This document shows, piece by piece, positions 42,903-57,838 of a DNA stretch of 64,000 nt. A model generated the notes under the pieces. The model saw only the letters and a list, made by a program, of their open reading frames with translations. It was not told the DNA's origin and ran no database searches. Numbering within the stretch: the first letter of the stretch is position 1; each line of letters begins with the position of its first letter. The translations under genes were made by a program, and so were the position numbers. Location of the stretch: NCBI GenBank assembly GCA_016793095.1, contig JAEUJQ010000056.1, positions 62,001-126,000 on the forward strand, written 5' to 3'. Source of the stretch: Myxococcaceae bacterium. GTDB lineage: Bacteria; Myxococcota; Myxococcia; Myxococcales; Myxococcaceae.

Positions 42903-44090
42903 TCACCCGAGCACCGCGAGCCACCCCGGCTTGAAGAGCAGCACCAGCGCCAGCGCGAGCATGACGATCCCCGAGATGAGCTTGAGCCAGCGGCCCTCGC
43001 GCTCCTGCAGCCTCCGCCGGCTGAGCGTCGCGACCGCGATGCCCACCATGAGGCTGTCGTCCACGATGTAGGCGAGGTTGTAGAGCGCGAGGTACCCGTA
43101 GTTCTGCCACGCCGGCAGGTGCTGTGAGGTGAGCACGTGGCTGTAGACGGCCGGGAAGCCAGCGGTGCACAGCAGCTCGACGAAGTTCACCAGCACCGCG
43201 AGCACGGCCGCTCCCGCGAGCGCGGCGAGCAGCCCCGGCGCGTGGAGGATGTCTCTCACCCTCGCCGCGATGCCCGCCTGCGCGCGCTCGGAGATGGTGA
43301 GGGAGGGACCCCGCTTGAAGGCGACGAACTCCTTCACGTTGAGCGCTCCCATCACCACCGCGAGTCCACCCAACACCAGCTGCACCGCGCGCGACAGGCC
43401 GACGAGGAGGAAGACGTTCAGCCAGGCAGCCATGAAGGCGAAGTACACCACGCCGCTCACCAGCACGAAGACGCCCGCCACCAACGCCATGCGTGACCGG
43501 CTCTTCAGGTTGACCAGCAACGACAGCAGGAACAGCAGCACCCACATCGCGCACGGGTTGAAGCCGTCGAGCAGGCCCACCACGATCGTGAAGAGCGGCA
43601 ACCCGAAGTCCTTCACCCGCACGGCGCCGAGCACGGGCAGGCTGACGGTGTCGCCCTCACACGCGGCCTGCGCTTCGGGCTGGCAGAGGGGCGTGGCGTC
43701 GGCCCCGGCGGTCGGAGCGCCGTCGAGCAGCTGGCGAAGGCGCGCGCCCGTCGTCTCGGCGCGGTCAAAGCCGAAGAGCAGGGTGCCCTGGCGTTCATCT
43801 CCCACGAGAATCGCCGGGACGCCCGCCACGCTGACACTCCGCGCCGCTGCGAGCGCCTGGAGTCGATCGCGCGCGGTGGCGTCCTCGTCGATGGCCCACT
43901 CCTGAACGACGAGGGCAGGACGCTCCTGACGAAGCTGCGTCACGAAGGCGTGCGCGTCGAGACAGTGCGGGCAACCAGCGCGTCCGAACAGCTCGAGATC
44001 AGCTGCGAGCGCTCGGCTCGGCTGAGCCAGTACCCCGACCAGGACGCAGCCGACGAGCCCGCCTCGCATGGCTCGACTCGTAGCAACCAT
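42903..44090 (-). CDS. Glutaredoxin / DsbD-like membrane oxidoreductase
   Basis: 395 residues. Signal peptide (GGLVGCVLVGVLAQPSRALAA) then a periplasmic thioredoxin-fold domain with redox motif CPHC in LFGRAGCPHCLDAH. From about residue 165 there are seven or eight transmembrane segments with FNPCAMWVLLFLLSLL and a second Cys in VELLCTAGFPAVYSHV, the two membrane cysteines expected for a DsbD/CcdA-type thiol electron carrier. It may move electrons across the membrane to periplasmic thiols, for example for cytochrome c maturation. AGGAAGG before the ATG at 44090 fixes the start. Confidence 0.88.
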   Translation of the reverse strand: MVATSRAMRGGLVGCVLVGVLAQPSRALAADLELFGRAGCPHCLDAHAFVTQLRQERPALVVQEWAIDEDATARDRLQALAAARSVSVAGVPAILVGDERQGTLLFGFDRAETTGARLRQLLDGAPTAGADATPLCQPEAQAACEGDTVSLPVLGAVRVKDFGLPLFTIVVGLLDGFNPCAMWVLLFLLSLLVNLKSRSRMALVAGVFVLVSGVVYFAFMAAWLNVFLLVGLSRAVQLVLGGLAVVMGALNVKEFVAFKRGPSLTISERAQAGIAARVRDILHAPGLLAALAGAAVLAVLVNFVELLCTAGFPAVYSHVLTSQHLPAWQNYGYLALYNLAYIVDDSLMVGIAVATLSRRRLQEREGRWLKLISGIVMLALALVLLFKPGWLAVLG

Positions 44091-44179
44091 CGTGCCTTCC
44101 TGGTCTCCGGCGAGACGCGCGAGGCACGCGTGCAAAGTCTTCGCGGTGAGGGCGACCGGGCGATGGCTGCTCGGCCGCC

Positions 44180-44400
44180 GTCACAAGCGTTGAGCTCGAG
44201 CGAGAAGTCGGCAGGCCGGCCAGGCAGCCCGGCTCCTCGGCGTCAGAAGCGTTGAGCTCGAGCCAGAAGCCACCACGTGACGGCGGAGCCGCCCGGCTCC
44301 CCGGCGTCAGAGGCGTTGAGCTCGAGCCCGAAGTCAGCGCGTGACGTCGGAGCCGCGCGGCTCGCCGGTGTCACCTCAGAAGCCGGCGCTGAGCTCGAGC
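44180..44400. repeat. Tandem copies of the TonB receptor 3' end (4 copies, ~62-73 bp)
   Basis: The core TGAGCTCGAG occurs at 44191, 44253, 44317 and 44390 (the last, with CTGAGCTCGAGCCAGAA, is the coding 3' end of the receptor). Read on the minus strand the copies look like the terminal codons FWLEL plus a stop-like TTCTGA, with small deletions that break frame. A non-coding array behind the gene stop. Confidence 0.8.
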
Positions 44401-47219
44401 CAGAAGGTGCGGCCGTACTGCGGAAGCAGGTTCGCGCTCACCTCGCTCTGCACTGGCAGCAGGACGCGCGAGTCGAGGAGGTTCTGAACGCCGGCGAAGT
44501 AGCGCACCGGCCCGTAATCGCCCGACAGCCCGAAGTTGAGGAGCAGCGCCTCGCCAGTGGCCGTGGCCGTTGCCGAGGTCCGTCGCCCTGACTGGTACGT
44601 CGCCTGGCTCGACAGCCGCACGAGGCCTTCCTTCAGGGGGATCATCGCGCGTGCCGAGGCGAGGTGCTGCGGGTAGGGCGGCGCGTCGCTCCCGCCGGGT
44701 CCGCCGAGCATCACGAACGAGTACGTGCCCTCGACGAGCGTGAAGCGCCCCGGCTGCCATCGCAGCTGCGCCTCAGCGCCCAGCGCCGTCAGGCCTCGCG
44801 TGGTGTTCGAGTAGACGAAGCACTGCCGGGCGCCGCCCGCGCAGGCTGGCGGGTCGGACTCTTCCTGGTTGAGCACCACGAGCCGGTCGATGAGGTTGTA
44901 GTAGCCGCCGAGCGAGGCGCGGAGCTCGGGCGTGAAGTTGTGAGAGTGCTCGAGCTCGAAGGTGGTGATGTACTCGGGCGTGAGCGTTCCCGGCAGCGGC
45001 GCCCGCTGCGTCGCGAGCCCGTCGCTGAACGACAGCTCGTAGACGGTCGGCGCGCGGAAGGCGCGGCCCGCCACCAGCTTGGTGACGCCCGACTCGTACA
45101 GCCGCGCGACCACCGCGCCACGCGGCGAGAGCGCGAACTCCCCGACGTCGTTGTACTTGTCCACGCGCACGCCGGCCTGGAGGAAGAGCCGGTTGTTCCA
45201 CAGCTGCCACTCGTCCATCAGCGTGCCGGAGAAGAAGAAGCGGGTGGTGTTCTGGGGCGCCTGAAAGCCCTCTGGCTGCTGGTACGCGAGCTGGGCCTGG
45301 CCCTCGACGCCCAGCGTCAGCCGGTTGCCGTCGAAGAGGAAGAGGCCGCCGCGGACCTCGGCCGAGAACCAGTCACCGCCGCCGATGTCGGTGGTGCGAA
45401 ACGACCCGCCGTCGTCCCCGACCTTCGCGTAGTAGCCGCGGTATCGGCTCGCGTCGTAGGCGGCCCGCGCGGTGAGCGTGAAGCGCGAGGCGAACTCCTG
45501 CTCGAAGCGAAGCTCGGCGAAGCCGCGCGCGTCGGTGTACTCCGTGCCCGGAACGCCGAAGGCAGCGCCGAGCGGCGCGGTGGGCACCTGCTTCTTGCGC
45601 TGGTTCCACTTCGCGGTGAGCGACAGGCCCTTCCACCTGGCCTTGGCGTTCGCGCCGATCGACCGTTCGTCGTCGAGGCCCCGCACCACGCCAGCCGTCC
45701 CCAGGTCGGTGAGCTCTGCGCCCGTCGCCGTGAACCCCGCGACCGAGAGGATGGCGGACGCCTCGTCGTTTCCCAGCGAGCCGGTGACGCGCGCCTTCAC
45801 GCCGCCCACGCCGCCGGCCCCCACCACGCCCTCGACGTTGCGGTTCGTGAGGCGAGCGCGTGGCACCACGTTGATGACGCCGAAGAAGCCACCGCTGCCG
45901 AAGAGCAGCGAGGCCGGGCCCCGCACCACCTCGATGCGATCGACCTCGGCCAGGTCGACGTCGAAGTCCCTCGCCGAGAAGCCCTGACCCGCCCACACGT
46001 CGTTCACCGGGTGCCCATCGAAGAGGATGAGGATGCGTGTGTTGAGGTCGCCCGGCGGCGTGAAGCCGCGAATGCCGATGTACGTGTAGATGCGATCGTC
46101 GGTGAAGAAGAGCCCGCGCACCGCCCGCAGCGCCTCGGGCAGGGTCTGGTAGCCGAAGGCCTGGATCTCCTCGCGCGTGATGACGGTGATCGACGCTGGC
46201 GCCTGGTCGACCGAGAGCAGCTGCTTGCTGGCGGCGGTCACCTTCGGCGGCGCGTAGCGGAGGTCGGCGGCGATGCGCAGCTCCTGATCCGCGGTGACCT
46301 CGACCGTCTGCAGGAAAGGCGCGACGTCGGTCGCGGTGATCTCGAGCTGGTGCTTGCCCTCGGTGAGGTTCAGCACCACCGGCGTGAAGCCCGAGTCCTT
46401 GCCGTCGACGCGCACCACCGCCGCGTCGCGGTTGGCGGTGACGATCACCTTGCCGGTGGGCTTCGGCTTCTCGGGCAGCGACACCTTCGCGCTCACCTGG
46501 GCGTCGGCTCTCACGTCGACGAGCACCTGCTGCGGCAGGTACCCCGGCGCCTGCACGAGGAAGAGGCGCTGGCCGGGCGGCAGGGTCAGCGTCGCGGGCA
46601 GCCTGCCCAGCTCGGGTCCATCGGCCGTCTCGCGCACCACTGCCCCCGCGGGCGTGCCGGTCAGCTCGACGGCGCCGACGATGCGCGACAGCTCGACCGT
46701 CACCTTCGCCTCGCGGCCCTTCACGGCCGTCACCTTCGCCTGCGCCGGTCGGAAGCCCTCGGCCTTCACCAGCACCGTGTGCGCGCCGGGCTTCACCGCC
46801 ACCGTCTGCGGCGTCTTCCCGCGGCTGCCGAGGTCTTCGCGATCGACGAACAGCTCGCCCTCGGTGGGCGTGGCCGTCACCGTCACCAGCGCGACCTGCG
46901 GCGAGAGCCGGGCGAGCGCGGCCTTCACGTCCTTGCGGTCGTCGGCGGGCAGGGTGGGGTCGACGAAGAGATCGTGCCAGTAGCGGTACGCCTCGTCGGG
47001 CCGGTCGAGCGCCTCGTAGCAGCGCGCGATGTTGAACAGCACGTTGCGGTTCGGCACCAGCCGGTACGAGAGGAAGTAGCTCGACAGCGCGGCCTCGTAG
47101 TCGCGCTTCGTGTACGCCTGCACGCCGCGCGAGAAGGCGATGTCGGCCTCGTCAGCGGTGTTGTCGGCCAGCACCGGGGCCGTGAAGAGCAGCACCACCG
47201 AGACCGAGAGCGCGCGCAC
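44376..47219 (-). CDS. TonB-dependent receptor with TPR and PEGA domains
   Basis: 947 residues. Signal peptide MRALSVSVVLLFTAPVLA. Residues about 25-100 are TPR-like (YTKRDYEAALSSYFLSYRLVPNRNVLFNIARCYEALDR). Three PEGA-type beta-sandwich repeats follow (GELFVDREDLGSRGKTPQTV; GTPAGAVVRETADG; NRDAAVVRVDGKDSGFTPVVLNL). The plug domain starts near 330 (APASITVITREEIQAFGYQTLPEALRAVRG) with VDRIEVVRGPASLLFGSGGFFGVINVV, then a long barrel ending with aromatic FWLELSAGF. Energised uptake across the outer membrane, substrate unknown. Divergent from the cytochrome/oxidoreductase genes, 167 bp apart. Confidence 0.93.
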   Translation of the reverse strand: MRALSVSVVLLFTAPVLADNTADEADIAFSRGVQAYTKRDYEAALSSYFLSYRLVPNRNVLFNIARCYEALDRPDEAYRYWHDLFVDPTLPADDRKDVKAALARLSPQVALVTVTATPTEGELFVDREDLGSRGKTPQTVAVKPGAHTVLVKAEGFRPAQAKVTAVKGREAKVTVELSRIVGAVELTGTPAGAVVRETADGPELGRLPATLTLPPGQRLFLVQAPGYLPQQVLVDVRADAQVSAKVSLPEKPKPTGKVIVTANRDAAVVRVDGKDSGFTPVVLNLTEGKHQLEITATDVAPFLQTVEVTADQELRIAADLRYAPPKVTAASKQLLSVDQAPASITVITREEIQAFGYQTLPEALRAVRGLFFTDDRIYTYIGIRGFTPPGDLNTRILILFDGHPVNDVWAGQGFSARDFDVDLAEVDRIEVVRGPASLLFGSGGFFGVINVVPRARLTNRNVEGVVGAGGVGGVKARVTGSLGNDEASAILSVAGFTATGAELTDLGTAGVVRGLDDERSIGANAKARWKGLSLTAKWNQRKKQVPTAPLGAAFGVPGTEYTDARGFAELRFEQEFASRFTLTARAAYDASRYRGYYAKVGDDGGSFRTTDIGGGDWFSAEVRGGLFLFDGNRLTLGVEGQAQLAYQQPEGFQAPQNTTRFFFSGTLMDEWQLWNNRLFLQAGVRVDKYNDVGEFALSPRGAVVARLYESGVTKLVAGRAFRAPTVYELSFSDGLATQRAPLPGTLTPEYITTFELEHSHNFTPELRASLGGYYNLIDRLVVLNQEESDPPACAGGARQCFVYSNTTRGLTALGAEAQLRWQPGRFTLVEGTYSFVMLGGPGGSDAPPYPQHLASARAMIPLKEGLVRLSSQATYQSGRRTSATATATGEALLLNFGLSGDYGPVRYFAGVQNLLDSRVLLPVQSEVSANLLPQYGRTFWLELSAGF

Positions 47220-47386: not shown

Positions 47387-49600
47387 ATGGTGCTTGACGT
47401 TCTGGTCCTCGGGGGACTGCTGGCCATCGGGCTGGGCCTCGGGCTCTTCATGCTGCGCCGCCGGGCCAGGCGCGAGGCCGCCGACTCGGCCGTGCTGGCC
47501 ACCGCGGTGAAGGAAGGCCGTGCCGAGGCGATGACGCTGCACCCCGTCATCGATCCTGATCGGTGCATCGGCAGCCTCTCGTGCCTGTCCGTGTGCCCCG
47601 AGGGCGACATCCTCGGCGTGGTGGACGGCAAGGCCGCGCTGGTGAACCCGAGCGCCTGCATCGGCCACGGCAAGTGCGCGCTCGAGTGCCCGGTCAACGC
47701 CATCACCCTCGTCTTCGGCTCCGAGAAGCGCGGCGTCGATCTGCCCGAGGTCGACGAGTTCTTCGAGACCAGCAGGAAGGGCCTGCACATCGTCGGCGAG
47801 CTCGGCGGCATGGGCCTCATCAAGAACGCCATCACCCAGGGCCTGCAGCTCGCGCGACACCTCGGACCGAAGCTGAAGCCCACCAGCACGAAGGACCTGG
47901 CTGACGTCATCATCGTGGGCGCCGGGCCATCGGGGCTCGCCACGGCGCTGGGCCTCAAGGAGCTGGGCCTCTCGTTCCACGTGCTCGACCAGGACACGCT
48001 CGGCGGCACCATCGCCCACTACCCGCGGCAGAAGGTGGTGATGACCGAGCGCATCGATCTTCCCTTCTTCGGACGGTTCGGCGCCCCGCTCATCTCGAAG
48101 GAGCAGCTGCTCGAGAGCTGGCAGGCCGCGGTCAAGAAGGCCGGCTTCAAGGTGCACACGGGCGTGAAGGTCGACCGCATCGAAGGCGAAGACGGCGCGT
48201 TCGTGGTGCAGACCTCGAAGGGCCCGGTGAAGGGGCGCAAGGTGGTGCTGGCCATCGGCCGGCGTGGCACTCCCCGCAAGCTGGGCGTCGCCGGCGAAGA
48301 GGACTTCAGCAAGGTCACCTACCGGCTCGTCGACGCGCGCCAGTACGAGACGGGCCGGGTGCTCGTGGTCGGCGGAGGCGACGCGGCGCTCGAGGCGGCC
48401 ATTCAGCTCGCCCAGGAGACCGACGCCGAGGTCTCGCTCAGCTACCGGCAGGCCGAGCTCGGCAAGGCGCGCGAGGCGAACAAGAAGCGCTTCAAGGAGC
48501 TCGTCGACCAGGGCCGCATCTTCTCGTTCATGCCGTCGACGGTGAAGGCCGTGAAGCAGAGCTCGCTCACCCTCGAGTACGACGGCAAGCAGCTCGACCT
48601 GCCCAACGACTACGTCATCGCCTGCCTCGGCGGTGAGCTGCCCACCGAGTTTCTCGCGAAGTCGGGCGTCACCATGACGCGCCTGCACGGCGAGGCCCTG
48701 GGAGCGAAGGCGAAGCGCGGCAGCGCGCTGAAAGACCAGAACGAGCGGCGCCACCGGCGCCTGTCCTTCGGGCTCTTCCTCGTCGGAGCGCTCATCGTGG
48801 CGACGCTCTTCGTGGTGGGGCAGGACTACTACCGGCTGCCGCTGGCCGCCCGCGCTGCGCACCCGGGTCACGCGTTCTTGAAGCCCGCGGGGCCCTGGGG
48901 CCACGGCGTCGGCATCGTCGCCACCGTCGTGATGCTGTCGAACTTCCTCTACGCCGTGCGCAAGCGCTGGGAGCGGCTCAAGGGGTTCAGCACCATCCGC
49001 ACCTGGCTCACCTTCCACCAGTTCGTCGGCTTCTTGAGCCCGCTCGTCATCGTCTTCCACGCGGCGTTCCAGACGAAGAACCAGCTCGCGACGCTGACGG
49101 GGGTGTGGATGACGGTGGTGGTGATCACCGGCGTCATCGGCCGCTTCCTGTACCAGCTGGTGCCGACCGACGCGAAGAGCGATGACCTCGCGTCGATCTC
49201 CCGTCGGTGGAAGCAGACCGGCGACGAGCTGGAGGAGGAGGTGACGAGGCTCGAGCTGCCGCAGTCGGTGCGCTCGCTGCTCGACGTCGCCGAGCACCGC
49301 CCCTCCGAGGACTCGCTGCTCCGCTTCTTCACACAGCTACCGAGGCAGTACGCCTCGGACTGGCGGCGGCTGCGCGAGGTGTGGCACCTCTTCCCCACGC
49401 CGGCGCATGGCCGCGAGTTCCGCAAGGACTTCTTCCAGCTCCGCAAGCTGCAGAGCCAGGTCGCCTTCTTCAAGTCGCTCAAGCGGGTGATGAGCGTCTG
49501 GCGCGTCTTCCACGTGGTGCTCGCGATCCTCCTCGTGCTCCTCATCGCCGCGCACATCGGGCTGTCGCTCTTCCTCGGCTACCGGTGGATCTTGAAGTGA
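47387..49600 (+). CDS. Membrane NAD(P)/FAD-Fe-S-heme b oxidoreductase fusion
   Basis: 737 residues. N-terminal transmembrane helix (VLGGLLAIGLGLGLFMLRR), two 4Fe-4S ferredoxin-type motifs (CIGSLSCLSVCPEG near 60 and CIGHGKCALECP near 91), then an FAD/NAD(P)-binding domain (VIIVGAGPSGLATALGL near 175; VLVVGGGDAALEAA near 320). The C-terminal part has four or five helices with paired histidines (LTFHQFVGF, IVFHAAFQ, VFHVVLAI, IAAHIGLS), consistent with two b-type hemes as in ferric-reductase/cytochrome b561-like modules. Likely passes electrons from NAD(P)H through Fe-S to membrane heme. The next gene (20-heme cytochrome) starts in a 4-nt overlap, so it is the electron entry point of the cytochrome cluster. 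Confidence 0.88.
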   Translation: MVLDVLVLGGLLAIGLGLGLFMLRRRARREAADSAVLATAVKEGRAEAMTLHPVIDPDRCIGSLSCLSVCPEGDILGVVDGKAALVNPSACIGHGKCALECPVNAITLVFGSEKRGVDLPEVDEFFETSRKGLHIVGELGGMGLIKNAITQGLQLARHLGPKLKPTSTKDLADVIIVGAGPSGLATALGLKELGLSFHVLDQDTLGGTIAHYPRQKVVMTERIDLPFFGRFGAPLISKEQLLESWQAAVKKAGFKVHTGVKVDRIEGEDGAFVVQTSKGPVKGRKVVLAIGRRGTPRKLGVAGEEDFSKVTYRLVDARQYETGRVLVVGGGDAALEAAIQLAQETDAEVSLSYRQAELGKAREANKKRFKELVDQGRIFSFMPSTVKAVKQSSLTLEYDGKQLDLPNDYVIACLGGELPTEFLAKSGVTMTRLHGEALGAKAKRGSALKDQNERRHRRLSFGLFLVGALIVATLFVVGQDYYRLPLAARAAHPGHAFLKPAGPWGHGVGIVATVVMLSNFLYAVRKRWERLKGFSTIRTWLTFHQFVGFLSPLVIVFHAAFQTKNQLATLTGVWMTVVVITGVIGRFLYQLVPTDAKSDDLASISRRWKQTGDELEEEVTRLELPQSVRSLLDVAEHRPSEDSLLRFFTQLPRQYASDWRRLREVWHLFPTPAHGREFRKDFFQLRKLQSQVAFFKSLKRVMSVWRVFHVVLAILLVLLIAAHIGLSLFLGYRWILK

Positions 49601-51363
49601 GCGTGCGCGTGGCGGTGCTCGGCCTGTCCCTCGTGGCGCTCGAGGCGCGCGCCGACCTCTTCTCCCCAGGCGAACTCGCGAGGGCGCACCAGAGCCTCTC
49701 GGGCCTGGGCAACTGCACGAAGTGCCACCCGGCTGGAGGTCAGTTGAGCCAGGAGTCGTGCCTCGAGTGCCACAGCGAGCTGACGCCCCGCATCGGCAAG
49801 GGCGCCGGCCTGCACGGCCGCATTCCCACCGACAAGCGAAACTGTGAGGGCTGCCACCGCGAGCACCAGGGCGAGGCGCACCAGCTCATCGACTGGGGGC
49901 CGCAAGGAGAGAAGAGCTTCAACCACCAGCGCACCGGCTGGGCCCTCAAGGGCGCGCACGCCCCCGCGAAGTGCACCGCCTGCCACGAGCCGCGCCTCGT
50001 GCAGTCCGCGCCCGTCCGCGCGCTGATGGACAAGCGCCCGCACACCCGCCTCGGCCTCTCGACCGCCTGCACCGCCTGCCACTTCGACGAGCACCGCGGC
50101 CAGCAGCAGGAGGATTGCGAGTTCTGCCACGTCGAGAAGGCGTGGAAACCGGCGCCAGGCTTCAACCACAACGAGACGAAGTACCCGCTGCGCGGCAAGC
50201 ACGCGAAGGTGAAGTGCACCGGCTGCCACGACGCCGAGAAGGACGCCGAAGCCCACGGCTTCCCCGTGCCGAAGAGCGAGACCTTCCTTCGCTTTGCGCC
50301 GCTCGAGTACCGGGCCTGCACCGACTGCCACAAGGACCCGCATGGAGGCGCCTTCGGCCAGCGCTGCCAGAGCTGCCACGTGCCCGACGGGTGGATGGTG
50401 CTGCGCAACGTGACCGGCGAGCGGGCCTTTCACGAGAAGACGGACTTCCCGCTGAAGGGCGCCCACCTCGACGTCGACTGCAAGACGTGCCACGGCCCGT
50501 TCCCGGGCGTGAAGGCGAAGTTCAAGGACCTCGAGCACAAGACCTGCGCCACCTGCCACCCCGATGCGCACGCGGGCCAGCTCGGCTCGGGGAAGGACAC
50601 GCCCGACTGCAAGGCCTGCCACTCGGAGCAGGGCTTCTCGCCCGTCAGCTACCCCCTCGAGGCGCACGCGAAGACGCGCTACCCGCTCGAGGGCGCGCAC
50701 CAGTCGGTGGCCTGCAACGCCTGTCACGAGCAGAACCCGGCGCTCAAGGCGAAGGTGCCGAAGGCCACCCTCGTCGACCTCAAGCGCCGCGGCCGCCAGG
50801 AGCTCTTCAGCTTCGCCGTGTTCGACGTGACGAAGCCGCTCGATGCCTGCGAGACGTGCCACGCCGACGCGCACAAGGGGCAGTTCAAGGACGTCGCGAA
50901 GGGCTGCGTGGCCTGCCACGACACCAGCAGCTTCCGGCACCTCACCTTCGACCACGACAAGGCCTCGCGGTTCCCGCTCGAGGGCGCGCACGAGAAGGTG
51001 GCCTGCGGGAAGTGCCACGCGCCGGCGGGGCCCTCGCTGCCGCTGCGCTACAAGCCCCTCGAGCAGGCCTGCCGCGCCTGCCACGCCGACGAGCACGCCG
51101 GGCAGTTCTCGAAGAAAGAGCCCGCCGCCTGCGAGCGCTGCCACGGCGAGAAGGCCTTCAAGCCGTCGAAGTTCCGCCACGAGCCGCCGTTCACCGACTT
51201 CCTGCTCGACGGCCAGCACGCGCAGGCGAAGTGCGAGGCGTGCCATCGCAAGGTGACGGTCGCGTCGGGCGTCACCACGGCTCAGTACCGGCCGCTGCCG
51301 CGCACGTGTGAGGGCTGCCACGCCGACTACCACGAGGGCGCGTTCAAGGGGTTCGAGCCATGA
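49597..51363 (+). CDS. 20-heme exported cytochrome c
   Basis: 588 residues from a GTG overlapping the previous stop. Signal peptide (VAVLGLSLVALEARA) then twenty CXXCH heme-binding motifs spread along the whole chain, for example NCTKCH, NCEGCH, DCEFCH, GCVACH and TCEGCH, with repeated FNHQRTGWALKGAHAPAKC / FPLEGAHEKVACGKC blocks of roughly 70-90 residues that look like internal duplications. Predicted periplasmic multiheme wire (cytochrome c3-like / decaheme-repeat). ATGA overlap with the next cytochrome gene shows they are made together. Heme attachment needs a Ccm system, not seen here. Confidence 0.92.
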   Translation: MSVRVAVLGLSLVALEARADLFSPGELARAHQSLSGLGNCTKCHPAGGQLSQESCLECHSELTPRIGKGAGLHGRIPTDKRNCEGCHREHQGEAHQLIDWGPQGEKSFNHQRTGWALKGAHAPAKCTACHEPRLVQSAPVRALMDKRPHTRLGLSTACTACHFDEHRGQQQEDCEFCHVEKAWKPAPGFNHNETKYPLRGKHAKVKCTGCHDAEKDAEAHGFPVPKSETFLRFAPLEYRACTDCHKDPHGGAFGQRCQSCHVPDGWMVLRNVTGERAFHEKTDFPLKGAHLDVDCKTCHGPFPGVKAKFKDLEHKTCATCHPDAHAGQLGSGKDTPDCKACHSEQGFSPVSYPLEAHAKTRYPLEGAHQSVACNACHEQNPALKAKVPKATLVDLKRRGRQELFSFAVFDVTKPLDACETCHADAHKGQFKDVAKGCVACHDTSSFRHLTFDHDKASRFPLEGAHEKVACGKCHAPAGPSLPLRYKPLEQACRACHADEHAGQFSKKEPAACERCHGEKAFKPSKFRHEPPFTDFLLDGQHAQAKCEACHRKVTVASGVTTAQYRPLPRTCEGCHADYHEGAFKGFEP

Positions 51364-52244
51364 CGGGCCTCGTGCTGCTCGTGCTGGTGGCGGCGCCGCT
51401 CGACGGCGGCCTGGGTTCGCCAGACGCCGGGCGCGCGTTCTCGATTCCTTCGCTCGCGGTCGCCCTCGGCAAGCCGCAGGCCGGGCACGGCGAGACCGCC
51501 TGCGCCGCGTGCCACTCGACCTCCTCGTGGCTGGACGTGCGCTTCAACCACGACCGCACCGGCTTCCCCCTCACCGGGCGACACCAGCGCACCTCGTGCA
51601 AGGGCTGCCACCAGAAGGACTTCAAGACCCCGCTCACCCGCGGCTGCGCGGGCTGCCACCGCGACGTCCACGCCGGCGACCTCGGCGTGCGCTGCGAGGG
51701 CTGCCACGACACGTCTGACTGGCGCTCGCGCTTCGACGCCGACGCGCACCGGCGCACCAACTTCCCCCTCCTTGGCGCGCACGCCGGGCTGCCGTGCGTC
51801 GAGTGCCACGTCGAGGCCCGCGAGCGCCGCTTCACCCGCGCCACCGTCGACTGCCTCTCGTGCCACCAGGGCGACGCGGCGCGCACGCGGGGCACCGCCG
51901 TCGACCACGCGGCCCTGGGCTTCGACGCGCGCGAGTGCCGGCAGTGTCACGGGCCGCTGCGCTTCTCGCCAGCGCTCTTGCCCGATCACGATCGCTGCTT
52001 CCCCATCAACGGCGGGGCGCACGCGGGCATCGGCTGCCAGGCCTGCCACACGTCGCTGCGCGCCGCCTCGTCGGCGGGCACCTGCCGCACCGGCACCGCG
52101 GCCTGCACCTCGTGCCACGAGCACCAGTGCACGCCAGGCGCCCCCTCGACCGAGACCGACCGGCAGCACGCCAACGTCGCCGGCTACGCCTGCCAGAGCC
52201 AGCGCTGCTACGGCTGCCACCAGCCGGCGGGGGTGCAGCCATGA
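51360..52244 (+). CDS. 10-heme exported cytochrome c
   Basis: 294 residues. Signal-like N-terminus MTGLVLLVLVAAP. Ten CXXCH motifs (ACAACH, SCKGCH, GCAGCH, RCEGCH, PCVECH, DCLSCH, ECRQCH, GCQACH, ACTSCH and RCYGCH). Same GAHAGLPCVECH-type repeat as the preceding 20-heme protein, so the two share a common origin. Translationally coupled to the upstream gene by ATGA overlap. Likely periplasmic, carrying electrons from the 20-heme protein to the outer-membrane complex. Confidence 0.92.
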   Translation: MTGLVLLVLVAAPLDGGLGSPDAGRAFSIPSLAVALGKPQAGHGETACAACHSTSSWLDVRFNHDRTGFPLTGRHQRTSCKGCHQKDFKTPLTRGCAGCHRDVHAGDLGVRCEGCHDTSDWRSRFDADAHRRTNFPLLGAHAGLPCVECHVEARERRFTRATVDCLSCHQGDAARTRGTAVDHAALGFDARECRQCHGPLRFSPALLPDHDRCFPINGGAHAGIGCQACHTSLRAASSAGTCRTGTAACTSCHEHQCTPGAPSTETDRQHANVAGYACQSQRCYGCHQPAGVQP

Positions 52245-52366
52245 CGAGATGGCTCGGCTCCCTCTCCCGGCGACCGCGGCCGAACACGCCCGGAGCAGCC
52301 GTGACGCCGCGCCTCCATGAGCGCGCCACGGCCTCGCTGCACACACGCACAGGAGAGCGGCCATGA
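52241..52366 (+). CDS. Tiny Arg-rich ORF bridging two genes (41 aa)
   Basis: Its ATG overlaps the stop of the 10-heme gene and its stop TGA overlaps the ATG of the barrel gene. The product begins MTRWLGSLSRRPRPN and is Arg/Thr-rich, with no recognised domain. The first 10 nt of the ORF and of the next gene are nearly the same (ATGACGAGA / ATGACGAGG), so it could also be a duplicated leader region rather than a protein. Could couple translation across the 118-bp gap. Confidence 0.35.
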   Translation: MTRWLGSLSRRPRPNTPGAAVTPRLHERATASLHTRTGERP

Positions 52367-54036
52367 CGAGGCGCTTCGTGCTCGTGACGCTGGCGCTGGC
52401 GGTGGTGGCGCAGGCAGGTCCCCGGCGCCCACCGAAGGCCCCGCGCGTGAGGGCCCCGCCCGCGAAGGCCCCGCCCGCGAAGAAGCTCGTGAAGTCGGCG
52501 GGCGAGGTGACCTGGGTGGGCGTCGAGTTCGCCTACGTCGACCGGGGCAGCGCCGAAGGCGTCGAGGTGGGCAAGCCGCTCATCCTCTCGCGCGGAGGAC
52601 GCGCTGCGGGCACCTGCACCGTGCAGTCCGTCGCCGAACACTCGGCGCGGTGCACCGGGCTCACCCTGCGCGTGGGCGATCGCTTCACCGTCTCGGCGGC
52701 GCCGGCGCCCCCGCCCGAGGGCCCGAAGCCGTTGCCCACCGAGCTCGAGCTGCGGCGCCGGGGCGCGCTCGTGGAGTCGACACCGTGGGTGCTGCGCCGC
52801 TTCGACTCGCCGGCCCTGACGCTCGGCGCGGGGCTGCACGCGAGCGCCGCGCTCTCGCACACCACCTTCTTCACTGCCGCGTCCCCCCGCCCGGCGTTCG
52901 GGCAGCAGCGGGTCGATGTCGTCGTGAGCGACCTCGAGCTGTGGAAGGGCTTGCGCGTGTCCGCCGACCTCTCGGTGCTGAACTTCAGCAGCCGGCCCGA
53001 GGTGACGCGCACCGTCTACACGCAGACGCCGGTGCTGCTCGTGCGGCAGCTGGAGCTGGGGTTCCGCCGCGCCGACCTGCCCCTCGCCGCGGGGCTGGGG
53101 CGCACCTGGCTCACCACCGGCCCGGGCCTGCTGGTGCTCGACGGCGCGCACACCTCGTTCCGCATCGGCGCCGCCGAGGTGGGCGTCTTCGCGGGGCTGC
53201 TGCCCGACGGCGCGCGGTTGACGCCCTCACTCTCGCAGTGGAGCACCGGCGCCTTCACCCGCCTGTCCTTCACCAGCGGCGAGGGCGCGAGCGCCGCGGT
53301 GCTGCAGGTCGCCGGCAGGGCAGGGTACGCGCTGCGCGACGGCATCGGCTCGAGGTTCGAAGCGGCGGTGGGCGCAGGCTACTGGGCGGGCAGCGCCTTC
53401 GACGCGCACGCCTCGGTCGAGGTGGGCTACGGCTCCACGCAGGCCGCGGCGGGCATCGACGCGGCGCGGCTGGACCTGGGGTGGCGTCCGACGGAGCGAC
53501 TGCTGCTGCTCGCCTCGGGGCGCTACCGCGGCCTGCCCATCGCCGGCGTTCCCGAGGTGGGCCTCGTCTCGCCGGGCTTGAGCGCGCTGCACGGCGACCT
53601 CGCCGCGACCTGGCAGCTGACGCCGGCCCTCGTCGTCGGCCTGCGCGGCGGCGTCGCGCGCGACTTCACCTCGACCCTCACCCAGCTGCGCGCCGGGCCC
53701 GAGCTGTCGATGCCCGGGCTCTTCGGCGGCCCGGTGTCGCTGGGCCTCGGGTACGCCGAGGAGGTCGGCTGGCTGCGCGGCCGGTCGGGCTGGTTCAACC
53801 TGAGCGTCACCGCTGGCAGCTTCTTCCGTGTGCTGTCGCGCACGAGCTTCTTCCACCAGCAGCCGACCGCCGGGGCCGAGGGGCTCTTCGCCGCCGAGCT
53901 CGGCCAGTCGCTGTCGCTCGAGGTCACCCCGTGGCGCTTCGTGCGCGCGCGGCTCGTGCTCGTCGGCCGGCAGACCGCGGGTGAGGCCTTTGCGCCCATG
54001 GGGAGCGTCGGTGGGCAGGTGGCGGGCACCTTCTGA
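52363..54036 (+). CDS. Predicted outer-membrane beta-barrel (porin-like partner of cytochromes)
   Basis: 557 residues. Signal peptide MTRRFVLVTLALAVVAQAG then a Pro/Lys-rich stretch and a small domain with strand VTWVGVEFAYVDRGSAEGVEVG. From about residue 150 the chain alternates amphipathic strands with turns (ADLSVLNFSSRPEV, FSVTAGSFFRVLSRTSFFHQ-like, RARLVLVGRQTAGEAFA) ending VGGQVAGTF, consistent with an outer-membrane barrel. No motifs specific to MtrB. Its place between the periplasmic and the lipoprotein multiheme cytochromes supports a porin-sleeve role; that is inference from context. Confidence 0.75.
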   Translation: MTRRFVLVTLALAVVAQAGPRRPPKAPRVRAPPAKAPPAKKLVKSAGEVTWVGVEFAYVDRGSAEGVEVGKPLILSRGGRAAGTCTVQSVAEHSARCTGLTLRVGDRFTVSAAPAPPPEGPKPLPTELELRRRGALVESTPWVLRRFDSPALTLGAGLHASAALSHTTFFTAASPRPAFGQQRVDVVVSDLELWKGLRVSADLSVLNFSSRPEVTRTVYTQTPVLLVRQLELGFRRADLPLAAGLGRTWLTTGPGLLVLDGAHTSFRIGAAEVGVFAGLLPDGARLTPSLSQWSTGAFTRLSFTSGEGASAAVLQVAGRAGYALRDGIGSRFEAAVGAGYWAGSAFDAHASVEVGYGSTQAAAGIDAARLDLGWRPTERLLLLASGRYRGLPIAGVPEVGLVSPGLSALHGDLAATWQLTPALVVGLRGGVARDFTSTLTQLRAGPELSMPGLFGGPVSLGLGYAEEVGWLRGRSGWFNLSVTAGSFFRVLSRTSFFHQQPTAGAEGLFAAELGQSLSLEVTPWRFVRARLVLVGRQTAGEAFAPMGSVGGQVAGTF

Positions 54037-54103
54037 CGTGCGGGGGAGCTACGATGAGCGACGAGCTGGGGCTGGAGTGGCCGATCTGCCGGAGAGAGAG
54101 TCC

Positions 54104-57100
54104 ATGAGGGTCGGCTCGCGGGAGGCGCCTGTGGGGCGTTCGCAGCTCAGGGTGCTGGCCGCGCTCGCGGCCGTGCTGTTCGAGGCCTGCAGCGGCCAGG
54201 GACAGGTGCCGCCGCTCACCCGCGTCACCGAGGAGTCGCACCCCTGGTTCCCCATCAGCCCGGCGCGCGACGGCGGGCACGCCATCGGCCGTACGACGGT
54301 GCTCGACGGAGTCTTCACCTGCGCGTCCTGCCACCCGGCCGACCAGGCGTCCTTCAAGGACTTCACCTGCACCACCTGCCACACCCACGCCGTCGCCATC
54401 GACGTCCTGCTGCACCGGGGCGTGCCCGACGCGGGCATGACGAGCGCCGCCTGCTACGCCTGCCACCCGACCGACGAGGGCACCTCCTCGCACGCGGGCA
54501 TCGTCGCCGGCGAGTGCGCGACCTGCCACGACGTCCAGACCGCCTTCGCCCGGCTGCCGCGCCCGGGCTTCACGCACCGCGACGTGGGCGGGGCCGACTG
54601 TGGCGCCTGCCACGTCACCTCGTCGTGGAGCGAGGTCAGCGGCGCGCCCGACGGCGTGTTCGACCCGGTGAAGAACCTCACCGTGAACACCCTGCTGCCC
54701 ACCTTCGCCGGCACCACCATCGCCACCGTGCGGCCGAACGCCGAGGTGCTGCAGATGCCGATGCGGCACTCGACGCGGCAGGTCGACGGGGGGGTGATGT
54801 CGGCCTGCACGAGCTGCCACCTCGAGGCGAGCAGCAACGTCTACTACCCGGCGACGCTCCACTCGTCGCTGGCCAACCTCGGCGAGCCGCAGCCCGCCAC
54901 CTGTGGCGAGTGCCACGACAAGAACCCGAGCGCGTACGCGATGACCGACGCCGGCGCGGGCACCCGGCCCACCGGCTTCGTGGGGCCGTTCCCGGTGGCG
55001 CCGCCGCGGACCCCACCGAGCGGCGAGATGCGCCACGAGGCCGTCGTGTGGATGAACGGCGCGCCCACCCAGACGCCGCTCGTCACCGCCGACTGCAGCA
55101 CCTGCCACTTCGCCCCCGGCGTCACCGAGGCCTCGTGGCAGACGGGGCGTGATGGCGGCGTGCGCTTCCACGCCTCGCTCACGCTCGCCGGCCTGCCGCC
55201 GCCGTCCTCGTGCCTCGACTGCCACGCGAACACCCGCCCCACCGCGCTCCTCACCTCGATGAACGCCGCGGTGCCGCCAGGGCTGTCGTTCGACCACCAG
55301 GCGCCGCCGTTGATGGGGGACTGCGCGGGCTGCCACCCCAGCACCACCGTGTGGAGCGGCGCGAAGTTCCACCCCGTCGGCGCCCAGACGCCCAGCACCT
55401 GCCTGCCGTGTCACGAGCAGGAGCGGCCGACCTCCACCGCGAGCTGGATGGACCCGACCTGGCGCACGCCTCCGTTCGACTACGTCACCAATGACGCCGG
55501 CGTGCGGCACGGCGCCGGTGAGGACTGCGCCGTCTGCCACCGCGGGCCGGGCACGGGCGCCTGGGGCACGAACCAGAACTGGCAGGGCGGCAGCTTCCCC
55601 CACGGGCCCACCACCATCGCGGCCACCACCTGCCTCGCGTGCCACCTGTCGCAGCGGCCCGACCTCAACGGCCTCACCGTCGCGATGCTGGGGTTCGACC
55701 ACGCCCTCAACGGCACCGGAGAGTGCGGCGCCTGCCACCAGGCCACCGTCGTCGCGGGACGGTACCGCGACTACTTCGGCCCTGACGGCGGGCCGGGCGG
55801 CGACTGGCGCGGGGGCACCTCGTACCCCGGCGACTACCTCGTCACCTCGCCGAGCCGCTACGTCACGCTGACGACGCTGCGCCTGCAGCGGCCGAGCCCG
55901 ACCGCCCTCATCACCGGCATGACGAGCCAGTCGGTGACGCTGCCCAACGCGATGAAGCACACGTCGACCGCCATCCCCACGCAGGTGCACCCCGGGCCCG
56001 CCTCGATGCCCGACAACGCCACCTGCTGGCACTGCCACACGAACACGATGGGCACGGTGACGTCGTTCGCGAACGGCGTCTTCCACTCGGCGCTGACGAA
56101 CTACCGCGCGACGGTGGGCGGGCCGGTGATGGCCCTGCCGCAGCCGACCTCGAGCTGCCGCGACTGCCACGCGACGATGCTGCCGCCCGACATCGTGCAG
56201 CGCGGCGGCAACGCGCTCTTCTCGATGGACCACCGGGCGCGCTTCGTCTCGGCGGTGATGATCGGCGGCCAGAGCGTCAGCAGCGTCGACGCCATCGACT
56301 GCAGCCGCTGCCACGCCACCTCGGGCACGGCGTGGAGCGACGGCCGCTTCCACCCGAACATCGCCTCGGCCACCCCGCAGGACTGCTCCGCCTGCCACTA
56401 CCCGCTCATGGCGACCGCCCAGGCCGACGTCACCACCATGACGCGCTTCGTGATGCGCCACCGCTCGGGGCAGATGACGACCCAGGCCTGCCAGACGTGC
56501 CACACCTCGTCGCTCACGCGCGCGACGATGATGCCGACCGCGGCGTCGCTCTGGAGCCCGGGCCAGTACCACCCGGTCGCCGCCACCCAGCCGGCGCTCT
56601 GCCTCGACTGTCACTCCATCTCGGAGCCGGCCGCCGCGACGCAGGGCACCTCGACGTACGTCTTCACGAACGGCGGCGGGTCGCCGACGAACGGCGGGCA
56701 GTGGATGAGCCACACCATGTCCGCGGTGGTGGGCCGTGACTGCAGCGGCTGCCACGCGGCCGACGCGCGCCCCATGGGCAGCGTCTGGTCGAAGGGCACC
56801 GCCTTCCACGCGAACGCGCCCAACGTCACCCAGTGCTCCGTCTGCCACGGCTCCGCGAACGGCCGGGGCGGCGTGCCTGGCACCAACAACAACCTGCCGA
56901 ATGGGCCGACCACCACGGCGACGGTGACGGCCTCGACGGCCTCACCGGGGGTGCGCGCGCAGATGAGCCACGCCGACCTCAACGCCACCTCGCACGACTG
57001 CAACTTCTGCCACACCCAACAGGGGCGCTCGACGGCGCCGGGCGTGCAGGGCCGCGAGTGGGCCCAGGCGCGGTTCCATTCGCGCTTCACCGCGGCGTCG

Positions 57101-57838
57101 CCCCTGGTGATGAACGGCACCACCGCGCGCTGCAGCAACTGCCACCTCAACGAGAAGCCGGGCCCGACGTACCCCACGTTCGATCACGCCGCGTTCTCTG
57201 GCGCGACGACGACGCCCGACTGCGGCACCTGCCACAGCTACCCTGGCGTGGCGCAGGCGACGCCCCCGGTGCCGACGCCGAACTGGAAGGGCGCCGCTGC
57301 GATGCCCGCGTACATCTCGGTGGGAGGTTTCACGATTCCGAACCCGCCGGCGCCGACCGCGGGCCGCGTGCAGGGCGGCATCGCGAACCTGCCGCACCCG
57401 CCGGTCGCCACGGGCGTCGCCTGTACCCTGTGCCACGCGCAGGCCTCGGGTGGGCGGCGCGCCTTCGGCTACCCGCACGCCTCGAGCACGCTCATCAACA
57501 CCAACTGCAACGCGTGCCACGAGGCCGGCAGCGATCTCGTCGGCACGCCGTGGAACGGGGCCACCACCGTCGGCGCGGGCGCGGGCGACACGCGGCCCTT
57601 CACGCTCGCCTCCGTCATCCCCAGCTTCGACGGGCCGAACACGCGCGCCTGCCCGCAGCCGAACCACTTCTACCCGGTGGACTGCAAGGAGTGTCACCTC
57701 ATCCCCCCGGGGAACGGCTTCGTCACGACGGGCTCGGCGTACATCACCGCGTGGCGCATGCACCATGACCGGGCGAAGATGACGCGCCCGACGACGTGCA
57801 ACCTCTGTCACGCGGGCGTCTGCAACATCCCCGAGTGA
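54104..57838 (+). CDS. 29-heme lipoprotein cytochrome c
   Basis: 1244 residues. Start at 54104 after a GGAGAGAGAG site. Signal with lipobox-like FEAC (VLAALAAVLFEACSGQ), so probably anchored in the outer membrane. Twenty-nine CXXCH motifs by eye count, from TCASCH to TCNLCH, spaced irregularly with long Thr/Pro/Gly-rich stretches between, plus a final Cys in GVCNIPE. Very large for a c-type cytochrome. Last gene of the plus-strand cytochrome run; expected to be the surface-facing electron terminal, with partners the barrel and the 20- and 10-heme proteins. Confidence 0.92.
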   Translation: MRVGSREAPVGRSQLRVLAALAAVLFEACSGQGQVPPLTRVTEESHPWFPISPARDGGHAIGRTTVLDGVFTCASCHPADQASFKDFTCTTCHTHAVAIDVLLHRGVPDAGMTSAACYACHPTDEGTSSHAGIVAGECATCHDVQTAFARLPRPGFTHRDVGGADCGACHVTSSWSEVSGAPDGVFDPVKNLTVNTLLPTFAGTTIATVRPNAEVLQMPMRHSTRQVDGGVMSACTSCHLEASSNVYYPATLHSSLANLGEPQPATCGECHDKNPSAYAMTDAGAGTRPTGFVGPFPVAPPRTPPSGEMRHEAVVWMNGAPTQTPLVTADCSTCHFAPGVTEASWQTGRDGGVRFHASLTLAGLPPPSSCLDCHANTRPTALLTSMNAAVPPGLSFDHQAPPLMGDCAGCHPSTTVWSGAKFHPVGAQTPSTCLPCHEQERPTSTASWMDPTWRTPPFDYVTNDAGVRHGAGEDCAVCHRGPGTGAWGTNQNWQGGSFPHGPTTIAATTCLACHLSQRPDLNGLTVAMLGFDHALNGTGECGACHQATVVAGRYRDYFGPDGGPGGDWRGGTSYPGDYLVTSPSRYVTLTTLRLQRPSPTALITGMTSQSVTLPNAMKHTSTAIPTQVHPGPASMPDNATCWHCHTNTMGTVTSFANGVFHSALTNYRATVGGPVMALPQPTSSCRDCHATMLPPDIVQRGGNALFSMDHRARFVSAVMIGGQSVSSVDAIDCSRCHATSGTAWSDGRFHPNIASATPQDCSACHYPLMATAQADVTTMTRFVMRHRSGQMTTQACQTCHTSSLTRATMMPTAASLWSPGQYHPVAATQPALCLDCHSISEPAAATQGTSTYVFTNGGGSPTNGGQWMSHTMSAVVGRDCSGCHAADARPMGSVWSKGTAFHANAPNVTQCSVCHGSANGRGGVPGTNNNLPNGPTTTATVTASTASPGVRAQMSHADLNATSHDCNFCHTQQGRSTAPGVQGREWAQARFHSRFTAASPLVMNGTTARCSNCHLNEKPGPTYPTFDHAAFSGATTTPDCGTCHSYPGVAQATPPVPTPNWKGAAAMPAYISVGGFTIPNPPAPTAGRVQGGIANLPHPPVATGVACTLCHAQASGGRRAFGYPHASSTLINTNCNACHEAGSDLVGTPWNGATTVGAGAGDTRPFTLASVIPSFDGPNTRACPQPNHFYPVDCKECHLIPPGNGFVTTGSAYITAWRMHHDRAKMTRPTTCNLCHAGVCNIPE

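What the first reader, a model, noticed from the sequence alone, without database searches (positions are those of the whole stretch)
47387..57838. 59-heme electron-transfer cluster: oxidoreductase, 20-heme, 10-heme, barrel and 29-heme lipoprotein
Five genes in one direction with start/stop overlaps encode a membrane flavin/Fe-S/heme-b enzyme, two exported cytochromes (20 and 10 CXXCH), a predicted outer-membrane barrel and a 29-CXXCH lipoprotein. The order matches an inner membrane to periplasm to outer membrane path, as in porin-cytochrome conduits of extracellular electron transfer, but with an unusual NAD(P)H-linked entry protein and a much larger heme count than the Shewanella MtrCAB (10+10) model. 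Myxobacteria are mostly seen as aerobes, so a full electron export path would be notable.
Basis: partly seen in the sequence, partly recalled or inferred. Interest (0 to 1): 0.85.

Follow-up and report, generated by a model that had tools for sequence, protein, structure and literature searches.

The report
NADPH-linked electron conduit, PCC3-like, myxobacterial
Five neighbouring genes encode what looks like a molecular wire that takes electrons from NAD(P)H inside the cell, passes them through the inner membrane, about 30 hemes in the periplasm and an outer-membrane pore, and on to a 29-heme surface protein; relatives in many phyla show that a widespread but unexplained conduit (PCC3) has an overlooked NAD(P)H-binding partner.

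Summary
In detail: 20, 10 and 29 CXXCH motifs, and no other frame in the 64 kb has more than one. All 59 motifs stay in the same columns in homologs 40-79% identical, with about one extra invariant histidine per heme. The cluster is not unique. A-B-C-D recurs with identical heme counts across Myxococcota, Anaeromyxobacter included, usually with E nearby. It belongs to the PCC3 kind of porin-cytochrome cluster (He et al. 2017), not reported there from Myxococcota. The last 290 residues of A are the PCC3 inner-membrane protein with its WX3HX13H motifs; B is the PCC3 periplasmic cytochrome; C and D have homologs in Ignavibacteria. D models as a 22-strand barrel. New here: the first 440 residues of A (two Fe-S motifs, FAD, NAD(P)H fold) are a separate gene beside PCC3 in Proteobacteria, Bacteroidota and others, and occur in 26 of 26 Gallionellaceae genomes with the PCC3 inner-membrane protein (2 of 34 without; p = 5e-15). 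Myxobacteria fuse the two. This suggests PCC3 exchanges electrons with NAD(P)H, not only quinones. Electron export is most likely on thermodynamic grounds, but direction and function are untested.

The parts
47387..49600 (+). Gene A: inner-membrane NAD(P)H/FAD/Fe-S/di-heme-b oxidoreductase, 737 aa; a fusion of the AN flavo-Fe-S subunit and the PCC3 inner-membrane protein (IMP)
   Evidence: Pfam and NCBIfam, alignment A1, homologs found as two separate genes in other phyla
47540..47710 (+). Two ferredoxin-type motifs in A: CxxSxxCxxxCP and CxxHxxCxxxCP; the second Cys of each is replaced by Ser and His
   Evidence: Ser/His in all listed orthologs with the motif except paralog L065, which has Cys in motif 1; His in motif 2 of 80/80 wider homologs, motif 1 C 51, S 24, A 4, T 1
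47903..48685 (+). YpdA/TrxR-like FAD + NAD(P)H domain of A, without a redox CXXC
   Evidence: Pyr_redox_3 1e-41, YpdA 2e-41 below its curated cut-off, PDB 7a76 5.6e-24
48722..49597 (+). PCC3-IMP domain of A: 5 TM, W540x3H544x13H558, TG582xxG585, W705x3H709x13H723 (two b hemes predicted)
   Evidence: these residues invariant in 31 sequences from Myxococcota, Proteobacteria, Ignavibacteria, Zixibacteria and Nitrospirota, apart from W540 (90% or more) and the first residue of TGxxG, which varies; topology; AF2 pLDDT 88.2
49597..51363 (+). Gene B: exported 20-heme cytochrome, homolog of the PCC3 periplasmic MHC
   Evidence: 20 CXXCH; 20/20 hemes in the same column in 17 sequences; about 29-32% identity to 18-24-heme MHCs beside PCC3 IMPs in Proteobacteria
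51360..52244 (+). Gene C: exported 10-heme cytochrome, homolog of the C-terminal part of the second MHC in Ignavibacteria/Bacteroidota clusters
   Evidence: 10/10 hemes in the same column in 18 sequences; 35% identity over 271 columns to L127 MHC25; shared C-terminal CHxH...TDxxH...GY...CYxCH
52363..54036 (+). Gene D: outer-membrane beta-barrel, 22 strands predicted, with a small N-terminal beta domain
   Evidence: AF2 pLDDT 76.9, VIA Z 17.5 to OpdK and 15-17 to TonB receptors, hhalign to Ignavibacteria porin prob 95.9, E 5.8e-9, 420 columns
54104..57838 (+). Gene E: 29-heme predicted lipoprotein, probably the surface end of the conduit
   Evidence: 29/29 hemes in the same column in 9 sequences; lipobox conserved in homologs; near A-D in most Myxococcaceae, at varying places

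Best explanation
A myxobacterial PCC3-type trans-envelope electron conduit whose inner-membrane cytochrome b is fused to its NAD(P)H dehydrogenase domain. NAD(P)H reduces FAD in the cytoplasm. Electrons pass by way of the two unusual Fe-S clusters and/or directly to two stacked b hemes (H544/H709 on the cytoplasmic side, H558/H723 on the periplasmic side), then to the 20-heme B across the periplasm, the 10-heme C within or at the mouth of the 22-strand barrel D, and the 29-heme lipoprotein E at the surface. Shown by computation: domains, motifs, conserved gene set, barrel, per-heme histidines, and strict partnership of the NAD(P)H subunit with PCC3 elsewhere. Inferred: the order of electron transfer, insertion of C in D, surface exposure of E, NAD(P)H as donor, and outward direction. 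Outward flow is favoured because NAD(P)H is about -0.32 V and the membrane potential also pulls electrons outward; it would serve as a redox outlet or for reduction of extracellular acceptors, without conserving energy at this step.
For: A has Fe-S, FAD/NAD(P) and di-heme-b parts with cytoplasmic topology for the first two. The IMP motif of PCC3 (PMC5566968) is conserved from myxobacteria to Sideroxydans, Ignavibacteria, Zixibacteria and Nitrospirota; a Bacteroidota copy shows it too. The AN half is a separate gene beside IMP and MHC in 51 (IMP) and 49 (MHC) of 58 loci with enough flank, counting the few fused Myxococcota and Planctomycetota loci. In Gallionellaceae AN is in 26/26 genomes with IMP and 2/34 without, p = 5e-15. 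A-B-C-D synteny and heme counts are conserved. C and D have homologs in Ignavibacteria, and the Bacteroidota operon has MHC, MHC and porin in the same order. D models as a 22-strand barrel. Invariant His number about two per heme, so wire-like bis-His hemes. Assembly proteins present.
Against: No expression, heme or electrochemical data were found for any myxobacterial member. Sideroxydans ES-1 PCC3 genes are down-regulated on Fe(II) (PMC8788666). D shows no detectable homology to the Sideroxydans PCC3 porin. Fold comparison of the IMP domain with NADPH oxidases is not above the background for helical proteins. A quinone site in the cytochrome b is not excluded. Anaeromyxobacter-like clusters lack E at this locus and have an 8-11-heme protein instead.
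Confidence: 0.6

Rival explanations
1. Quinone model of He et al.: the di-heme cytochrome b exchanges electrons with the quinone pool, and the flavin/Fe-S part is a secondary or regulatory branch.
For: Proposed for PCC3 by analogy with cytochrome b of the bc1 complex and hydrogenase (PMC5566968). A sensory flavoprotein fused to a cytochrome is possible.
Against: The AN subunit co-occurs with IMP in 26/26 Gallionellaceae genomes and is fused in Myxococcota; it keeps FAD, NAD(P) and Fe-S motifs. The main text of the proposers' paper does not mention it.
Confidence: 0.2
2. Electron uptake: extracellular donors feed electrons inward, and A reduces NAD(P)+, driven by the proton motive force or by very low-potential donors.
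For: PCC3 is common in iron oxidisers, and NADPH supply is their bottleneck.
Against: Uphill in both redox potential and membrane potential; no ion-pumping module in the cluster; most Myxococcota are heterotrophs with no shortage of NADPH (general knowledge).
Confidence: 0.12
3. Periplasmic electron store or detoxification system: B, C and E act as a capacitor or as reductase of soluble oxidants, with no extracellular acceptor.
For: Capacitor roles are discussed for very large MHCs (PMC11495043; PMC10734462); no acceptor is known.
Against: A dedicated outer-membrane barrel goes with A wherever contigs are long enough to tell, and E carries a lipoprotein signal.
Confidence: 0.06

Closest known systems
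PCC3 porin-cytochrome cluster (He et al. 2017, PMC5566968; Gallionellaceae, PMC10734462)
   Same: Di-heme-b inner-membrane protein with WX3HX13H twice, about 21-heme periplasmic MHC homologous to B, barrel gene, large second MHC, one cluster
   Different: The IMP is fused to the NAD(P)H flavo-Fe-S subunit, which the PCC3 papers read here do not list; the barrel is smaller (22 strands) and not detectably related to the Sideroxydans porin; cytochrome C has only 10 hemes; an additional 29-heme lipoprotein E; host phylum Myxococcota
PCC3-like operons of Ignavibacteriales (L127) and Emticicia plasmid pEMTOL02 (L158), found here
   Same: AN, IMP, MHC of 20-23 hemes, second MHC of 25-40 hemes with the C-terminal signature of C, and a porin related to D
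   Different: AN and IMP are separate genes; the second MHC is longer; no E; the Emticicia copy carries its own ccsA
Shewanella MtrCAB / Sideroxydans MtoAB
   Same: Works alike: periplasmic MHC, barrel, surface MHC
   Different: D has no Pfam hit, so none to MtrB_PioB; entry via quinol-oxidising CymA rather than a flavoprotein; 10+10 hemes
Anaeromyxobacter pcc pair (Shi et al. 2014, PMC4245776; Adeh_3392)
   Same: Same host group; porin plus MHC
   Different: Two genes only, a 12-14-heme MHC, no inner-membrane gene
NADPH oxidases / ferric reductases (NOX, SpNOX, FRE)
   Same: Architecture: cytoplasmic NADPH and FAD feed two b hemes held by two HX13H motifs
   Different: The nucleotide domain is TrxR/YpdA-like, not FNR-like; has Fe-S motifs; partner is a multiheme cytochrome

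Membership tests
PCC3 | IMP with 5 TM, two WX3HX13H motifs and SGXXG | tested here: met
   Residues 446-737 of A; histidines, second W and both G invariant in 31 sequences, first W in 90% or more; T in place of S in Myxococcota
PCC3 | Periplasmic MHC with about 21 hemes | tested here: met
   B, 20 hemes, about 30% identical to 18-24-heme MHCs beside IMPs
PCC3 | Outer-membrane barrel gene in the cluster | tested here: met
   D, 22 predicted strands, linked to A on the same contig in nearly all genomes with both
PCC3 | Porin homologous to proteobacterial PCC3 porins | tested here: inconclusive
   No similarity to the Sideroxydans porin, but related to the Ignavibacteria PCC3-like porin
PCC3 | Extracellular MHC with many hemes | tested here: inconclusive
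   C (10) and E (29) fill the slot; location not shown; C is related to MHC25 of Ignavibacteria
PCC3 | Extracellular electron transfer | not testable with these tools
   Functionally unverified even in Gallionellaceae (PMC12442390)
MtrCAB/MtoAB | MtrB/PioB-type barrel and MtrA/DmsE-type decaheme | tested here: not met
   D: no Pfam family at all; C hits only Cytochrome_C7, Cytochrom_CIII and Paired_CXXCH
NADPH oxidase / ferric reductase | FRD transmembrane domain with FNR-type NADPH domain | tested here: not met
   HX13H motifs present, but the nucleotide domain is Pyr_redox_3/YpdA-like and there is no FRD Pfam hit
Thioredoxin/bacillithiol disulfide reductase | Redox CXXC (TrxR) or score above the YpdA cut-off | tested here: not met
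   No CXXC in A; 141.8 bits against a cut-off of 339.9

The most novel reading that the evidence does not exclude
All PCC3-type conduits, from iron-oxidising Gallionellaceae to Bacteroidota and myxobacteria, are quinone-independent lines between the cytoplasmic NAD(P)H pool and the cell surface: a respiratory or redox-balancing outlet built like a NADPH oxidase whose acceptor is a chain of tens of c hemes reaching outside the cell.
Probability: 0.4. Interest if true: 0.8.

Novelty: new variant of a known kind. Interest (0 to 1): 0.64.

Why it matters
PCC3 is widespread and has had no tested function and no known cytoplasmic partner since 2017. The myxobacterial gene fusion, with the 26-of-26 co-occurrence in Gallionellaceae, names that partner and turns the question 'what is PCC3 wired to?' into a simple biochemical assay. 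It also extends the system to Myxococcota, including relatives of the metal-reducing Anaeromyxobacter. If NAD(P)H is the donor, electron exchange with the outside could be independent of quinones, which changes how energy budgets of these bacteria are drawn.

Tried and rejected
PDB sequence search gave no useful relative for B, C or E. Foldseek and VIA of the IMP domain: SpNOX Z 7.5 (rmsd 3.3 over 125 residues) and STEAP1 Z 7.5 do not stand above unrelated helical proteins, so no fold claim is made. D against the Sideroxydans porin: nothing. Against a single Emticicia porin the hhalign probability is low (1.2, E 0.043), although that porin matches the Ignavibacteria one at E 3e-29, which in turn matches D. 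Promoter/terminator scan: nothing above shuffles. dN/dS was computed, but dS is capped by 72% GC codon bias, so only pN < pS is used. Single or double origin of the fusion (Myxococcota, Planctomycetota) is not resolved: the Myxococcota clade has support 1.0 but the branch grouping Planctomycetota with the non-fused forms has 0.15. Flavin-based electron bifurcation was considered because of Fe-S + FAD + NAD(P), but nothing supports it over simple transfer. A. dehalogenans proteomics data (Nissen 2012) were not found in the library.
Full report
WHAT IS THERE. The window is bases 62001-126000 of contig C82 of an 8.8 Mb genome; close relatives in a named collection are 'Myxococcales bacterium' and 'uncultured Archangium' assemblies. 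Five same-strand genes lie at 47387-57838. A is 737 aa; B, C and E carry 20, 10 and 29 CXXCH; D has none. No other frame in the 64 kb has more than one CXXCH. A/B and B/C overlap by 4 nt; C-D and D-E are separated by 118 and 67 nt, E starting at ATG 54104 behind GGAGAGAGAG.

ARE THE HEMES REAL? In alignments of homologs 40-79% identical to the window proteins, all 20 motifs of B (17 sequences), all 10 of C (18) and all 29 of E (9) fall in the same columns. Invariant histidine columns number 41, 19 and 59, which is about one distal histidine for each heme. This is the pattern of bis-histidine wires, not of catalytic hemes. Residues per heme are 29, 29 and 43. Three matches to the cytochrome c assembly family PF01578 are in the genome. 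pN is below pS for all five genes against three relatives.

GENE A. Pfam finds ferredoxin and Pyr_redox_3 domains; the closest solved relatives of the flavin domain are YpdA/TrxR-like. There is no CXXC in A, so it is not a disulfide reductase. The second cysteine of each Fe-S motif is replaced, by Ser and by His; the His is present in 80 of 80 relatives from many phyla. Ferredoxins with such motifs bind [3Fe-4S] clusters, those with His at higher potential (PMC6237146). The first TM helix is followed by RRRARR and the second is preceded by basic residues, placing Fe-S and FAD domains in the cytoplasm. The membrane part has invariant H544, H558, H709 and H723, spaced as two HX13H motifs on helices 3 and 5 of that part.

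CONSERVATION. A and D were sought in 60 related genomes: with few exceptions they occur together, on the same contig with similar spacing. In most of 20 loci examined, the order A-B(20)-C(10)-D is constant and the heme numbers identical; exceptions are frames that run off contigs, are broken or merge with a neighbour. E, where found, has 29 hemes in most (27 once, one 47-heme frame), but its position moves: downstream, divergent upstream, or upstream on the same strand. Anaeromyxobacter-like genomes lack E there and have an 8-11-heme cytochrome between C and D; a MAG named Anaeromyxobacter has A-B-C-D, its D cut by the contig end. The sizes of G045 and G057 match A. dehalogenans 2CP-1 and Anaeromyxobacter Fw109-5 as I remember them. 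In the phylum, 50 of 174 genomes at least 85% complete match the A profile.

WHAT KIND OF SYSTEM. A search with A in named genomes returned about 440-aa proteins covering only residues 20-440, in Gallionella, Sideroxydans, Bradyrhizobium, Chromatiales, Ignavibacteria and others. Next to most of them lie a 300-aa homolog of the second half of A and an 18-24-heme homolog of B. This is the PCC3 cluster of He et al. 2017, defined by a porin, an extracellular MHC (median 34 hemes), a periplasmic MHC (median 21) and an inner-membrane protein with 5 TM, two WX3HX13H and SGXXG. In a 31-sequence alignment the four His, the second W and the two G of that motif are invariant between myxobacterial A and the separate IMPs; the first W holds in 90% or more. 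He et al. noted the likeness to NADPH oxidase membrane domains but proposed quinone as partner, and their main text does not mention the flavoprotein.

THE OVERLOOKED PARTNER. Of 58 loci with at least 4 kb of upstream flank, 51 hold an IMP homolog and 49 a B-like MHC; most are divergent pairs, and a few are the fused Myxococcota and Planctomycetota forms. Of 16 genomes searched whole (15 without IMP near AN and one with it), 13 have an IMP somewhere. In 60 genomes of the Sideroxydans family, IMP is found in 26 and AN in 28; all 26 IMP genomes have AN, p = 5e-15, and I count 22 of the 26 as divergent pairs less than about 1.5 kb apart. Emticicia oligotrophica carries ccsA-IMP-AN-MHC(23)-MHC(40)-hypothetical (the last related to the Ignavibacteria porin) on a plasmid. 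In the AN tree the fused Myxococcota form one clade (support 1.0) within a branch that also holds Planctomycetota, Ignavibacteria, Zixibacteria, Bacteroidota and Nitrospirota. A gene fusion plus strict co-occurrence is strong evidence that the NAD(P)H flavo-Fe-S protein and the PCC3 cytochrome b act as one enzyme.

BARREL AND CYTOCHROME C. D has no Pfam family. AlphaFold2 with 17 sequences gives a small N-terminal beta domain and 22 further strands (pLDDT 76.9); the best structural matches are outer-membrane barrels (OpdK Z 17.5; TonB receptors 15-17). D is related to the Ignavibacteria porin over 420 columns, and C to the end of the second MHC there, sharing a C-terminal CHxH..TDxxH..GY..CYxCH signature that recurs, with small changes, in Bacteroidota and Zixibacteria. 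So A to D is an ancient set shared across phyla, and E is the myxobacterial addition.

MECHANISM. Electrons from NAD(P)H go to FAD, the Fe-S clusters, two b hemes, B, C in or at D, and E. Direction: from about -0.32 V, and with the membrane potential pulling electrons outward, export is downhill and import uphill (general bioenergetics). Export through this enzyme would not itself pump protons, so a redox outlet or reduction of extracellular oxidants fits best. None of this has been measured; PCC3 expression in Sideroxydans does not follow Fe(II) oxidation (PMC8788666, PMC12442390).

VERDICT. Observation confirmed. It is a new variant of a known kind, with one new general inference about PCC3.

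Noticed in passing
L075:2-6127: Beside its A-D cluster this myxobacterial genome has a 2042-aa frame with 47 CXXCH that is E-like.
   Followed up: no
L065 and L085 (G010:C534): Second copy of A in one genome whose first Fe-S motif is canonical CxxCxxC, suggesting that the Ser form is derived.
   Followed up: no
window 42903-44135 (-): Glutaredoxin-like domain fused to a CcdA/DsbD-like membrane domain (by eye, not searched), 3 kb from the cytochrome cluster; could serve heme-thiol chemistry.
   Followed up: no
window 44376-47219 (-): TonB-dependent receptor with PEGA-like repeats (by eye, not searched), divergent from A.
   Followed up: no
L158 (Emticicia oligotrophica plasmid pEMTOL02): A PCC3-like operon with its own ccsA is carried on a plasmid, so the conduit may be mobile.
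   Followed up: partly
G003:C91:56767-58907: A same-genus genome has a second, unfused, divergent AN + IMP-like pair besides the fused A.
   Followed up: no
L059:14598-15887 (-) / L078:8462-9751 (+): Frame with 3 CXXCH just upstream of A in one close relative, absent from the window.
   Followed up: no
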